Under the pieces are notes generated by a model. It saw nothing but the letters and a program-made list of their open reading frames with translations. It was not told the origin of the DNA and did not search any database. This document shows, in pieces, positions 23,745-30,544 of a stretch of 34,848 nt of DNA. A program made the position numbers and the translations under genes. Within the stretch, counting starts at the first letter, position 1, and every line of letters begins with the position of its first letter. The DNA comes from Planctomycetota bacterium (GTDB taxonomy: Bacteria > Planctomycetota > UBA1135 > GCA-002686595): the NCBI GenBank assembly GCA_029259595.1, contig JAJDEW010000049.1:1-34848 (forward strand), read 5' to 3'.

Positions 23745-26700
23745 TCAGGCTTCCTGCAACGCGGTCTCGAAGGCGCGCTTCACGAGGTGCGCCTGCTCCG
23801 CCTGGTGGCGGGTGTAGGAGCCCGTCGCGGGGCTCGGGGACTCGGGCCTTCCAGCGTAACGGACGGTGAGGCCGAGGTCGGCGAAGCGCTGCATGAGGAA
23901 GGGCCAGGCGCCCATGTTGCGCGGCTCCTCCTGGCAGAAGACCAGCTCGGCCGGCTTCAGTCGCTCGAGCACGTCGCGCAGCGCCTTGGCGGGCAGGGGA
24001 TAGAGCTGCTCGAGACGCAGCAGCGCCGTCTCGCGGTCGTCGTTCTCATCGCGGTAGGCGGCCAAGTCGTAGTACACCTTGCCCCACGAAAGGACCGCAC
24101 GCTTCGTCTCCCCCGCGGGCTCGTCGACCATGAGCTCCTGGAATCTTCCGGTGACGAGCTCTTCGATCGGGCTGGCCGCGCGCTTGTCGCGCAGGAGCGA
24201 CTTGGGCGTGAAGATGATCAGCGGGCGCTTCTCGGGCGCGAGACCCTGACGGCGCACGAGGTGGAAGTACTGCGCCGAGGTCGTGCAGTTCGCGACGGTC
24301 ACGTTGCCGCCCGAGCACAGGCCCAGGAAGCGTTCGGGGCGCGCGCTGGAGTGTTCGGGACCCTGACCATCGAAGCCGTGCGGCAGGAGCAGCGTGACAC
24401 CGCTCTTCTGATGCCACTTGGATTCGCCCGACATGATGAACTGGTCGACGGGGATCTGCGCACCGTTGACGAAGTCGCCGAACTGCGCTTCCCACAAGAC
24501 CAGCGCGTCGTTGCGCGCGAGCGAGTAGCCGTACTCGAAGGCCAGGACGGCTTCCTCGGACAGGAGCGAGTCCCAGGCGTCGAAGTCGGCGCCGCCGCGC
24601 GCGACCTCGCGCAAGGGGACGTAGTCGACTTCGGTGACCTGGTCGCGGATCACGGCGTGACGGTGGCTGAACGTGCCGCGACCCGAGTCCTGACCGGCGA
24701 GGCGGATCGACACGGCTTCCTGCAGGAGCGAGCCGAAGGCCAACGTCTCGGCGCAGCCCCAGTCGAGCCCTTGCTCGCCCCGCACCATCTGCTCGCGCCG
24801 CCGTAGTTGACGAAGGAGATTCGGGTGCGTCACGTGCCCCTCGGGCATGCGATTCGTCGAGTCGATCAGATCGACCAGCGTGCTGCGCGCGACTCCGGTC
24901 TCGGGCGAAGGCTCGTTCGTGTAGTCGGCCGGATCGTCGTCGTCGAGGTCGATCACGTCGTCCTCGGACACCTCCGGCGGCTCGAGGTTGCGGGACGTCT
25001 CGAGCGCGGCCGAGAGCTCGGCGTCGAATTTCTCGGCGATCTCGTCGGCCGCACCCTGCTCGATGGCGCCGCGGCGCAGCAGGAGGCTCGTGTAGTTCTC
25101 GCACACGGTCGGGTGCTTGCGGATCTTGGCGTAGAGCACCGGCTGCGTGTAGGCCGGCTCGTCACCCTCGTTGTGGCCCCAGCGCCGGTAGCAGACCATG
25201 TCCACGACGGCGTCCTCGCTGAAGGTCCGCTGGTAGTCGACCGCCACGCGTACGGCCCGCAACACCGACTCCGGATAGTCGCCGTTCGCGTGCAGGATCG
25301 GCGCCTGGATGCTCTTGGCGATGTCCGTGCAGTAGTAGGTCGAGCGCAGGTCGCGCGGACCCGCCGTGAAGCCGATCTGGTTGTTGACGACGAGGTGCAC
25401 GGTCCCGCCGTTGCCGAAGGCGCGCAGGCGCGACATGTTGAAGGTCTCGGCGACGACCCCCTGGCCGCTGAAGGCCGCGTCGCCGTGGATCTGCACGGCG
25501 AGCACGGTCTTGCGATCCGTGTCGCGCGCGGCGTCTTGGTAGGCGCGCGTCATGCCGCACACGACCGGCCCGACGGCCTCGAGGTGGCTCGGGTTCGCGC
25601 ACAACAGGACCTCGACGCTGCGCCCGGTGCGCGTCTGGTACGTCCCGCGTTGACCCAGGTGGTACTTAACGTCGCCCGACCCTTCGGTCGAGAGCGGCAG
25701 AAGCACGCCTTCGAACTCGCGGAAGACCTGCGCATAGGACTTGCCCAGGATGTTCGCGAGCACGTTCAACCGCCCGCGGTGGGCCATACCGACGATGACC
25801 CTCTCGACGCCTTGCTCGGAGGCGCGCTCGATCAGCTCGGCCAGCATCGGGATCAGCGTGTCGGCGCCTTCGAGGGAGAAGCGCTTGTTGCCGACGTACT
25901 TCGTGTGCAGGAAGCGCTCGAAGTTCTCCGCTCGATAGAGCCGTTGCAGGATCTCGAGCCGGTGGTCCTGTGAGAACTCGAATTCGCTCTCGGGGTCCTC
26001 GACCCGCGACCGCAACCAGTGCTTGCGCCCGCGATCGGCGATGTGCATGTACTCGAGCGTCCAGCGCCGGCAGTAGCTGCGCCGCAGGGTCGCGAGGATC
26101 GCGCGCAGCGTCATGTGCTGCTCGCCGTTCATCCCGCCGCACAAGAACTCGCGGTCCAGGTCCCACACCGTGAAGCCGTAGGACGACGGGTCCAGCGACT
26201 CGAGCGGATCGGGGCGGTACTCCAAGGGATCGAGGTCCGCCAGCCGGCTGCCGCGCACGCGATAGGCGGCGATCAGGTCGCCAACCTTGGTCTGCTTCTC
26301 GGTCTCGTCGCCGCGCCGGTGATGATCGCGTTCGCTCCGGAAGGGCTTCCACGGCACGCGCATGGAGTCGAAGACCTCCTGGTAGAAGCCGTCTTCGCCC
26401 CGCAGGAGCTCCTCGACGCGCTTCAGAAAGAGCCCGGACTCCGCGCCCTGGATGACGCGGTGGTCGTAGGTGCTGGTCACGGTCATCACCGGACCGAGCG
26501 CCACGTCCGCCAGCGCGAGCGCCGACGTCCCCGCGACCTGCGCCGGCACACCGATCGCTCCCGTCGCGACGATCGTGCCCTGCCCCTGCATCAGCCGCGG
26601 CACGCTCATCTCGGTTCCGAACCCGCCGGGGTTCGTCAGCGTCACGTGCACGTCCTTGTAGTCGTCGGTCCCGAGCTTGCCGTCGCGCCCGCGCTTCACG

Positions 26701-27329
26701 ACGTCCTCGTAGGCCTCGTGGAACTGCCGGAAGCTCATCGCGTGCGCGCCGTGGATCGCGGGAACGACCAGCATGCGTCCCTTGCCCCCCGGCCCGGGCA
26801 CGTCGATCGCGAGCCCCAGGTTCACGCCGTCGGCGTTCTTGCGGAACGGTTTGCCGTCGATCTCCGTGAACGACGCCAGCATGGCCGGCTGCTCGCGCAA
26901 GGCGCGCACCAGCGCGAAGGCGATCAGGTGCGTGTACGAAGCCTTGCCGAGCGCCCGGAGCTTCATGTGCTCGTTCAGGACGCTGCGGTTTTCCGTCAGG
27001 ACCTTGGCCGCAAGCGTTCGCACCGAGGTAGCCGTCGGCACCTCGAGGCTGGCGCTCATGTTGGCGGCGATCCGCGAGCCGATGCCGCGAATGGGCTCGA
27101 GCAACGGGTCGTCGGCCGCCTGGACCTGGGCCGCGGTCGTCTTCGTCGACGCGGGAGCAGCCTGGGGCGTCGCGCGCTCCTTGGCCGCGGCCGCCGCCTC
27201 CGGATCGAGCCGTTCGAAGAGCTCCTGCCAGCTTTCGTCGACGCTGGCTGCCTCCGCCTTCCAGTCCTCGTAGAGGCCTTGGACGTAGCCGGAATTCACA
27301 CCGTACGCGCTCTCGAAATCGATTCCCAT
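23745..27329 (-). CDS. kgd: Multifunctional 2-oxoglutarate decarboxylase / dehydrogenase E1 with fused succinyltransferase domain
   Basis: A 1194-residue fusion like actinobacterial Kgd (SucA-type E1 joined to an E2 catalytic domain). The N-terminal helix segment (SGYVQGLYEDWKAEAASVDE) is the E1 subunit-binding region. Residues about 75-350 are an E2 acyltransferase domain with the catalytic His290 in DHRVIQGAESG and no lipoyl domain. The rest is the thiamine-diphosphate-dependent E1 (HRGRLNVLANILGKS, GDAAFSGQGVVAETFNMS, HLVVNNQIGFTAGP, MVCYRRWGHNEGDEPAYTQP, SGESKWHQKSGVTLLLPHG). It oxidatively decarboxylates 2-oxoglutarate in the TCA cycle, with the lipoyl-bearing partner supplied from elsewhere. 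The ATG at 27329 starts at the conserved MGIDFESAYG; an upstream extension is unlikely. Monocistronic, divergent from the secreted-protein gene. Confidence 0.95.
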   Translation of the reverse strand: MGIDFESAYGVNSGYVQGLYEDWKAEAASVDESWQELFERLDPEAAAAAKERATPQAAPASTKTTAAQVQAADDPLLEPIRGIGSRIAANMSASLEVPTATSVRTLAAKVLTENRSVLNEHMKLRALGKASYTHLIAFALVRALREQPAMLASFTEIDGKPFRKNADGVNLGLAIDVPGPGGKGRMLVVPAIHGAHAMSFRQFHEAYEDVVKRGRDGKLGTDDYKDVHVTLTNPGGFGTEMSVPRLMQGQGTIVATGAIGVPAQVAGTSALALADVALGPVMTVTSTYDHRVIQGAESGLFLKRVEELLRGEDGFYQEVFDSMRVPWKPFRSERDHHRRGDETEKQTKVGDLIAAYRVRGSRLADLDPLEYRPDPLESLDPSSYGFTVWDLDREFLCGGMNGEQHMTLRAILATLRRSYCRRWTLEYMHIADRGRKHWLRSRVEDPESEFEFSQDHRLEILQRLYRAENFERFLHTKYVGNKRFSLEGADTLIPMLAELIERASEQGVERVIVGMAHRGRLNVLANILGKSYAQVFREFEGVLLPLSTEGSGDVKYHLGQRGTYQTRTGRSVEVLLCANPSHLEAVGPVVCGMTRAYQDAARDTDRKTVLAVQIHGDAAFSGQGVVAETFNMSRLRAFGNGGTVHLVVNNQIGFTAGPRDLRSTYYCTDIAKSIQAPILHANGDYPESVLRAVRVAVDYQRTFSEDAVVDMVCYRRWGHNEGDEPAYTQPVLYAKIRKHPTVCENYTSLLLRRGAIEQGAADEIAEKFDAELSAALETSRNLEPPEVSEDDVIDLDDDDPADYTNEPSPETGVARSTLVDLIDSTNRMPEGHVTHPNLLRQLRRREQMVRGEQGLDWGCAETLAFGSLLQEAVSIRLAGQDSGRGTFSHRHAVIRDQVTEVDYVPLREVARGGADFDAWDSLLSEEAVLAFEYGYSLARNDALVLWEAQFGDFVNGAQIPVDQFIMSGESKWHQKSGVTLLLPHGFDGQGPEHSSARPERFLGLCSGGNVTVANCTTSAQYFHLVRRQGLAPEKRPLIIFTPKSLLRDKRAASPIEELVTGRFQELMVDEPAGETKRAVLSWGKVYYDLAAYRDENDDRETALLRLEQLYPLPAKALRDVLERLKPAELVFCQEEPRNMGAWPFLMQRFADLGLTVRYAGRPESPSPATGSYTRHQAEQAHLVKRAFETALQEA

Positions 27330-27526
27330 GGACTCATCATCGTCAAGCCGGCCCTCGATCGAAAGCCCGAGCTTCGAAGGGCCGGGCTCGTGGGACACCG
27401 ATCCTGCGACCCGTGCCATAATCACGCCTGGTCCGGGCTCCCTGGCGGTCGTCGCCTGCAAGCGCGTCCAGCTCGGCCCGTCCCGCCCCCCCCCTTTCCC
27501 TCAGCCCTCCTCGAGACCCGCCTCTC

Positions 27527-29661: not shown

Positions 29662-29928
29662 TCAGCCGAAGCGCTTGGCCGCACGCGCGCGGGCCTTGCG
29701 GGCTTCCTGCTCGCGGTTGCGGGCCGGGGCTTGGGTCACGAGGTCGGCCAGCAAGCGTTCCGCGAGGCGTGCCACGTCCTCGACGGCCGCATCGAAGACG
29801 ACTGCGTTGGCCTTGGAGGGCTTGTTGAAGCCGCTCAGCTTGCGCACGAACTGGAGCGAGGCGGCGCGGACCTCGTCCGGCGTCGCGGGCGGGTCGAAGT
29901 TGAAGAGCGTCTTGATGTTGCGGCACAT
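29662..29928 (-). CDS. DUF2277 family protein
   Basis: An 88-residue cytoplasmic protein that matches the DUF2277 family over its whole length: MCRNIKTLFNFDPPATPDEV, RAASLQFVRKLSGFNKPSKA, NAVVFDAAVEDVARLAERLL, then a basic Ala/Arg-rich tail. The Cys at position 2 and the conserved MCRNIKTL opening fix the ATG at 29928; the long upstream extension in frame is an Arg/Pro-rich shadow. The family is small, mostly helical and of unknown function. It lies about 200 bases downstream of the rhodanese gene on the same strand, so it may or may not be cotranscribed with it. Confidence 0.88.
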   Translation of the reverse strand: MCRNIKTLFNFDPPATPDEVRAASLQFVRKLSGFNKPSKANAVVFDAAVEDVARLAERLLADLVTQAPARNREQEARKARARAAKRFG

Positions 29929-30124: not shown

Positions 30125-30544
30125 TCACCCCAGGGCGGCCCAGGTCCGGCCCTCGACGGGGTCGGTCGTCGTCGCCAGTCCGGCATCGAGCCAGCCGGGT
30201 TCGACGACGCGCCCGGCGGGGTCGGTCATGCCGTGGTAACCGCCGAGTTGGTTGACGAGGTTGTGGTAGCCGACGCTGGAGAGGATCTCGCAGGCACGCT
30301 GCGAGCGACCGCCGGCCTTTCAGCCGAAGACCAGCTTGTGGTCGGGCTGGAAGTGCTTCTGGATGGCGTCGACGAAGTCCTCGTTGGGCTGCATGCCGAA
30401 GGCCATGCGGAAGGCGATCGGGATGTTGTAGGCCCCGGGGACGTGGCCGGCTTCGAACTCTTCGACGGTGCGGACGTCGACGAAGGTCCAGCCGTCCTGG
30501 ATCAGGGCGTCGACCGCGGCGGGCTTTTCGTTCTGGTAGCTCAT
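30125..30544 (-). CDS. Selenocysteine-containing rhodanese-like sulfurtransferase (TGA at catalytic position)
   Basis: Read with one TGA as an amino acid, the gene encodes 139 residues and ends at the TGA at 30125-30127. Residues 1-74 are a rhodanese N-terminal half (FVDVRTVEEFEAGHVPGAYN, IPIAFRMAFG). Codon 75 (30320-30322) is TGA exactly where the active-site Cys of the Cys-x-x-Gly-x-Arg-Ser loop belongs: LVFG-[TGA]-KAGGRS. The same frame then continues as SQRACEILSSVGY, LVNQLGGYHGM, GRVVEPGWLDAGLA, GRTWAALG, the usual second half and tail of this rhodanese subgroup. A hairpin suited to a SECIS follows the TGA. Single-domain rhodaneses transfer sulfur or selenium via the active-site residue in the cytoplasm. 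The alternatives are a fresh nonsense mutation or a base-call error. No Sec machinery gene lies in this window. Confidence 0.8.
30283..30319 (-). promoter_or_regulatory. Candidate bacterial SECIS element downstream of the in-frame TGA
   Basis: On the minus strand, 14 bases after the TGA, CTCGCAG pairs perfectly with CTGCGAG (plus-strand 30287-30305) around the 5-base loop CGTGC. The distance from TGA to the apical loop is 21 nt. The loop has a G among its first two bases. These properties fit the general bacterial SECIS description: a stem-loop inside the coding region, loop roughly 16-37 nt after UGA, and a G at the start of the loop. The stem also encodes conserved residues RSQRACE, so some of its pairing could be coincidental. 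Confidence 0.6.

What the first reader, a model, noticed from the sequence alone, without database searches (positions are those of the whole stretch)
30125..30544. Rhodanese whose catalytic cysteine is encoded by TGA: probable selenoprotein
Seen directly: an in-frame TGA at 30320-30322 falls exactly at the active-site position (LVFG-TGA-KAGGRS), and 64 further codons continue the rhodanese domain and its family-type C-terminal tail with no frame shift. A perfect 7-bp hairpin with loop CGTGC lies 14 nt past the TGA, as a bacterial SECIS should. Known: Cys-to-Sec replacement at catalytic positions is the classic sign of a selenoprotein, and to my recollection Sec-containing rhodanese-like proteins have been reported. 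Standard gene callers would truncate this gene at residue 74.
Basis: partly seen in the sequence, partly recalled or inferred. Interest (0 to 1): 0.9.

Follow-up and report, generated by a model that had tools for sequence, protein, structure and literature searches.

The report
Planctomycete rhodanese with selenocysteine active site
In this planctomycete genome a gene of the rhodanese (sulfur-transfer) family has UGA, normally a stop codon, exactly where its relatives encode the catalytic cysteine, and it is likely read as selenocysteine: a further member of a kind already predicted in other bacteria, useful because relatives carry either the UGA or the cysteine version.

Summary
On the minus strand (30544-30125) a 139-codon PF00581 rhodanese has one in-frame TGA (30322-30320, codon 75) at the catalytic-cysteine column, then 64 open codons. 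In its class 35 of 154 genomes carry an orthologue; 7 of the 35 have TGA at this column, 28 have TGC/TGT. The seven TGA genes share a hairpin (7-bp stem, CGUGC loop, 21 nt after the UGA) fitting the published bacterial SECIS model: six form 7 of 7 pairs, one 6; the 28 Cys genes form 0-5 in that register. The host has selA, selB, tRNA-Sec and selD, and its FdhA and SelD also carry in-frame TGA. For the window alone the hairpin is weak evidence (10% of synonymous redraws); conservation across genomes carries the case. Sec-rhodaneses are already catalogued (five forms, PMC13188914), so this is a new member of a known kind. New here: the Sec forms are not one clade (AU p 6e-5), and two congeners differ. 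Sec insertion and sulfurtransferase activity are untested.

The parts
30125..30544 (-). Rhodanese gene, ATG 30544-30542 to stop TGA 30127-30125, 139 codons with TGA at codon 75
   Evidence: PF00581 57.9 bits against a cut-off of 22.2 (on the read-through P0003)
30320..30322 (-). In-frame TGA at the catalytic-cysteine column, predicted Sec codon 75
30287..30305 (-). Predicted SECIS apical hairpin: 7-bp stem 30305-30299 with 30293-30287, loop CGUGC 30298-30294
   Evidence: model limits

Best explanation
This gene encodes a single-domain rhodanese with UGA in place of its catalytic cysteine codon, which the host's selenocysteine machinery likely decodes as selenocysteine, guided by the hairpin just downstream (predicted SECIS). 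Shown: the TGA at that column, the hairpin in the seven TGA-bearing orthologues, and genes for SelA, SelB, SelD and tRNA-Sec in the host. Inferred: SelB binds the hairpin and delivers Sec-tRNA to UGA75, giving the full 139-residue protein; without selenium a 74-residue product would result. Inferred: the selenol in the UxxGxRS loop takes a sulfane sulfur from thiosulfate or a persulfide, holds it as a Se-S intermediate and passes it to a thiol acceptor, i.e. a sulfurtransferase/persulfide relay as in cysteine rhodaneses. UGA is not simply reassigned, since this gene and most window genes end in TGA.
For: TGA at the catalytic column in 7 of 35 orthologues, Cys in the other 28; no other in-frame stop in any of the seven; in the TGA pair G005/G068 changes after the TGA fall mostly on third positions (7, 6 and 26 at positions 1, 2, 3 over 63 codons), so the part after the TGA is under selection as protein; identical hairpin core with CGT 7 of 7 against 59 of 642 Arg codons in window genes and 3 of 47 elsewhere in the seven genes; 6-7 of 7 pairs in TGA genes against 0-5 in Cys genes; bSECIS limits met in the window gene; selB 335.4 bits joined, tRNA-Sec 71.8 bits with TCA anticodon, selA 496.8, selD 316.8, all over cut-off; host FdhA and SelD carry in-frame TGA in NCSRAUHSPTVAG and ACAGUAAK; 17 of 21 window genes end in TGA; rhodanese fold with residue 75 in the active loop, pLDDT 96.8.
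Against: No protein or read data. For the window alone the stem is reached by 10% of synonymous redraws and the 54-nt fold has z -0.25. Covariation is not above shuffles (246 of 500; one two-sided change). The 19-nt hairpin of G033 scores -6.0 kcal/mol, short of the model's -7.5, and G068 lacks the outermost pair. The loop CGUGC does not make the N1-N2 pair that most bSECIS loops have. One Cys gene has an equally long stem in another register (L169), and one Cys gene outside the 35 (L083) also encodes RSQRACE. The sulfur-transfer step rests on family chemistry; no neighbour gene points to a substrate.
Confidence: 0.88

Rival explanations
1. It is a selenoprotein, but the selenol does redox work (peroxide, arsenate or disulfide reduction) and not sulfur transfer.
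For: Most predicted Sec proteins are thought to serve redox functions (PMC9312934 passage); a second cysteine, Cys85, is invariant in the 47 aligned rows.
Against: Loop and fold are those of ordinary single-domain rhodaneses. Cys85 lies inside helix 79-89, ten residues on, belongs to the Cys forms too, and is missing in one orthologue, L034.
Confidence: 0.25
2. Broken gene: the TGA is a nonsense mutation or a sequencing error in a decaying rhodanese.
For: Standard translation stops at residue 74 (one search lists the ORF ending at 30320).
Against: The same column is TGA in seven genomes of six genera; no further stop in any of them and third-position bias after the TGA; the hairpin is kept; the host decodes Sec elsewhere.
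Confidence: 0.03
3. UGA is read by a near-cognate tRNA or is reassigned in this organism, without selenium.
For: Read-through of single UGA codons by near-cognate tRNAs is known in bacteria (recalled).
Against: 17 of 21 window genes end in TGA, the rhodanese's own stop included as a further TGA; the replaced residue is the catalytic Cys and the SECIS-like hairpin goes with the TGA; full Sec machinery is present.
Confidence: 0.03

Closest known systems
Rhodanese-like domain-containing selenoprotein form 2 (PF00581, earlier COG0607; motif UxxG; example MBM9537886.1) in the catalogue of PMC13188914
   Same: Rhodanese domain with one predicted Sec and the UxxG motif (U-K-A-G here)
   Different: The example sequence could not be fetched, so orthology is untested; form 4 has the same UxxG motif
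Single-domain cysteine rhodaneses (Arabidopsis At5g66040, PDB 1tq1; E. coli GlpE, PDB 1gmx)
   Same: Fold and active loop: 1tq1 is the best PDB sequence match (E 4.8e-18, GCQSGGRS against GUKAGGRS); GlpE is among the structural matches
   Different: Cys, not UGA, at the catalytic site; the matches to 1tq1 and GlpE end near residue 105-113, before the family's C-terminal tail
TsoB, rhodanese/DsbD fusion-like selenoprotein (NF045694)
   Same: A rhodanese domain in a predicted selenoprotein
   Different: 572-position two-Sec fusion; the window protein scores 19.7 bits against a cut-off of 805
tRNA 2-selenouridine synthase MnmH (rhodanese domain)
   Same: Short N-terminal similarity over residues 12-43
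   Different: 37.4 bits against a cut-off of 241; MnmH uses selenium as substrate with a Cys rhodanese (recalled)

Membership tests
Bacterial selenoproteins | In-frame UGA at a column where homologues have Cys | tested here: met
   7 TGA and 28 Cys of 35 orthologues; Cys in 46 of 46 aligned database homologues
Bacterial selenoproteins | bSECIS hairpin: 3-9 nt loop, 4-16 bp stem, G in first two loop positions, 16-37 nt from UGA, at most -7.5 kcal/mol | tested here: met
   Window: 5 nt, 7 bp, G at 2 then U, 21 nt, -9.5; of the other six TGA genes, five also reach -7.5 on the 19-nt hairpin and G033 does not (-6.0)
Bacterial selenoproteins | SelA, SelB, tRNA-Sec and SelD in the genome | tested here: met
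Bacterial selenoproteins | Selenocysteine present in the protein | not testable with these tools
   no proteomic data
Single-domain rhodanese (PF00581) | Profile score above cut-off, rhodanese fold, nucleophile in the CxxGxR loop | tested here: met
   57.9 bits against 22.2; fold; loop met with U for C
Single-domain rhodanese (PF00581) | Sulfurtransferase activity | not testable with these tools
   needs enzyme assay
Rhodanese selenoprotein form 2 (COG0607, UxxG) | Rhodanese domain with UxxG motif and one Sec | tested here: met
   U75-K-A-G78; motif list
Rhodanese selenoprotein form 2 (COG0607, UxxG) | Orthology to the listed example MBM9537886.1 | not tested
   sequence not available by accession here
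TsoB (NF045694) | Score above 805 bits, rhodanese/DsbD fusion | tested here: not met
   19.7 bits
tRNA 2-selenouridine synthase MnmH | Score above the curated cut-off (241 bits for NF008750) | tested here: not met
   37.4 bits

The most novel reading that the evidence does not exclude
In one planctomycete family a rhodanese has toggled between selenium and sulfur at its active site at least three times, once within a genus, and in every selenium version found the SECIS RNA dictates the protein: the helix after the active site is locked to SQRACE, nearly codon for codon, and is released when the codon becomes Cys. That is a natural experiment on why an enzyme keeps selenium and on what the RNA signal costs the protein.
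Probability: 0.5. Interest if true: 0.6.

Novelty: new member of a known kind. Interest (0 to 1): 0.45.

Why it matters
Standard gene calling cuts this enzyme at residue 74. Sec-rhodaneses stand in catalogues as predictions, and the passages read here give them no tested function. Here Sec and Cys versions occur in two species of one genus (G033 and G081), with the Sec machinery shown in the window's genome, so the open question of why selenium is kept at an active site could be asked on matched natural enzyme pairs.

Tried and rejected
Rfam RF00031 in the own genome gave nothing, but no control genome rang, so it says nothing; that model is the eukaryotic SECIS (recalled). Fold of the 54-nt region: not stronger than shuffles. 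Covariation: one two-sided change only, not above shuffles. Gene neighbourhood as a clue to substrate: 13 stretches compared; besides the rhodanese, shared neighbours are mainly between congeners (G005/G068, G033/G081), with scattered matches among unfiltered ORFs of others, among them the 1238-aa gene of the window also near the gene in G009; no functional lead. tRNA-Sec as a discriminator: useless, since 58 of 61 relatives have it; the three without are G023 and G035 (Cys orthologues) and G038 (no orthologue); G068 was not in that set. One search read 29 of the 80 loci; in-frame TGA at the column in L081 (the G033 contig) and L092 (G068) only; its codon finder was off register in some rows, so translations and alignment were read instead. 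Eight rows carry TAA or TAG inside the match and were not inspected (probably the genes' own stops). Nonsense mutation, reassigned UGA, TsoB and MnmH: rejected for the reasons given in the other fields.

Full report
WHAT IS THERE. The gene lies on the minus strand, ATG 30544-30542 to stop TGA 30127-30125. With TGA read as Sec it gives 139 residues with one internal TGA, codon 75, in LVFG-U-KAGGRS. It is a PF00581 rhodanese (57.9 bits, cut-off 22.2). AlphaFold2 gives mean pLDDT 96.8 (modelled with Cys for Sec) and places residue 75 between strand 71-74 and helix 79-89; the fold matches rhodaneses, GlpE among them. The best sequence match in the PDB is Arabidopsis At5g66040, GCQSGGRS against GUKAGGRS. 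Standard translation stops after residue 74.

RELATIVES. A search of the 154 held genomes of the class found an orthologue in 35 (E at most 1e-15). These 35 were tabulated: TGA at the catalytic column in 7 (G000, G033, G007, G009, G034, G005, G068; six genera beside nothing else in the window's own genus), TGC or TGT in 28. G068 is read from L092, which has the same contig number and end coordinate. In a sample of 392 genomes of the phylum 64 matched and 4 of these had TGA, all from the window's own family. Of 80 named loci from the genome collection (itself capped) 29 were read: TGA at the column in two planctomycete contigs only, SIAI01000022.1 and NZBA01000050.1. So within what was searched the Sec form is confined to one family of Planctomycetota. 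The 46 database proteins aligned, of 120 listed and 1130 found, have Cys at the column, as expected of ordinary gene calls.

THE HAIRPIN. The TGA is followed by 14 nt and then CTCGCAG-CGTGC-CTGCGAG (30305-30287). The published bacterial model asks for a loop of 3-9 nt, a stem of 4-16 bp, a G in the first two loop positions, 16-37 nt from UGA to loop and at most -7.5 kcal/mol (PMC13188914 section 5, read in full); the window has 5 nt, 7 bp, G at position 2 followed by U, 21 nt and -9.5. Alone this is weak: 1982 of 20000 synonymous redraws have as long a stem, and the 54-nt fold has z -0.25. Across genomes it is strong. The seven TGA genes encode SQRACE there with TCG CAG CGT GCC TG(C/T) GA(G/A), although the window protein shares only 50-55% identity with four of the others and 42-43% with two. 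None of the 28 Cys genes has CAG CGT at that place or encodes SQRACE; one Cys gene outside the 35, L083, does encode SQRACE, with other codons. In the fixed register six TGA genes form 7 of 7 pairs and G068 6; the Cys genes form 0 to 5. Free of register, mean longest stems are 7.3 and 4.6, with one Cys gene (L169) reaching 7. CGT, which puts the U in the loop, is 7 of 7 here, against 59 of 642 Arg codons in window genes and 3 of 47 elsewhere in the seven genes; related genes are not independent draws. G033 has TTCGCAG/CTGTGAA, a change on both sides of the outermost pair plus a G-U; it is the only two-sided change, and shuffles reach that in 246 of 500. The Cys gene of its congener G081 has SARACE and 4 of 7 pairs.

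THE HOST DECODES SEC. selB (641-aa frame, 335.4 bits joined, cut-off 242.25), tRNA-Sec (71.8 bits; TCA anticodon), selA (496.8 bits), selD (316.8 bits with an in-frame TGA). The selD TGA sits in ACAGUAAK, and a formate dehydrogenase alpha (773.8 bits) has TGA in NCSRAUHSPTVAG, both at usual Sec positions (recalled). Of 21 likely window genes, picked by eye, 17 end in TGA and 4 in TAG, so UGA works as a stop. No second copy of the rhodanese shows in the 90%-complete genome at E 1e-3. Of 61 relatives 58 have tRNA-Sec, among them the six TGA genomes in that set.

EVOLUTION. A tree of 34 of the 35 proteins, catalytic and hairpin columns removed, needs four changes between Sec and Cys; well-supported branches force three; holding the seven Sec rows together is rejected (AU p 6.2e-5). 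With those columns kept, four changes, two forced. Long branches (G034, G059, G056, G046) make some placements unsure, and direction of change and horizontal transfer are not resolved. The near-identical hairpin in distant Sec genes suggests one old Sec form lost several times (inference).

HOW IT LIKELY WORKS. SelB would hold Sec-tRNA at UGA75 through the hairpin; the selenol would act as the nucleophile of a rhodanese, taking and handing on sulfane sulfur. The second part rests on the chemistry of Cys rhodaneses (recalled) and the intact loop; a redox role is the main rival. No neighbour gene points to a substrate.

WHAT IS KNOWN. Rhodanese selenoproteins were predicted in the Sargasso Sea and GOS surveys (PMC1088965, PMC2398784; passages) and counted in a bacterial survey (PMC5029168; passages). 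The 2026 catalogue lists five forms, two with the UxxG motif found here (PMC13188914; passages, outline, sections 5 and 8); the 2022 review lists COG0607 forms too (PMC9312934; passages). A 2016 study describes selenoproteins in two planctomycetes, with no 'rhodanese' in its main text (PMC4807772; passages; supplements not opened). The deep-Sep paper's main text has no 'rhodanese' or 'planctomycet' (PMC12013277; word search only). Searches for selenoprotein + planctomycet + rhodanese found two papers and, with planctomycetota from 2020, one of these again; PMC1794560 was looked at in passages, PMC10340089 as a listing only. Other searches: (listings). So this member and its Sec/Cys switching were not met in print in these searches of an open-access library, while the kind is known.

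Noticed in passing
L207 (G000:C64:8279-10276) and L048 (G000:C113:18206-19147): Host formate dehydrogenase alpha and SelD also carry one in-frame TGA each, at NCSRAUHSPTVAG and ACAGUAAK, so the genome has at least three predicted selenoproteins; selD and tRNA-Sec lie about 2.6 kb apart on contig C113.
   Followed up: partly
L161 (G081) and L019 (G033): Two species of one genus differ: TGA with hairpin in G033, TGC without it in G081.
   Followed up: yes
L034 (G059): A Cys orthologue from another family of the order groups with the Sec gene of G009 (99/91, long branch): transfer or long-branch attraction.
   Followed up: no
L026 (G034): The TGA gene of G034 has a very long branch (1.38) and an altered stretch (GIVWNERF, GPPLGV), as if changed in function.
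   Followed up: no
window 23745-27461 (-): 1238-aa ORF that looks like a 2-oxoglutarate dehydrogenase E1 fused to an acyltransferase-like part (recalled, not scanned); a relative lies beside the rhodanese in G009.
   Followed up: no
window 29662-29928 (-): Small ORF beginning MCRNIKTLFNF that resembles DUF2277 proteins (recalled, not scanned).
   Followed up: no
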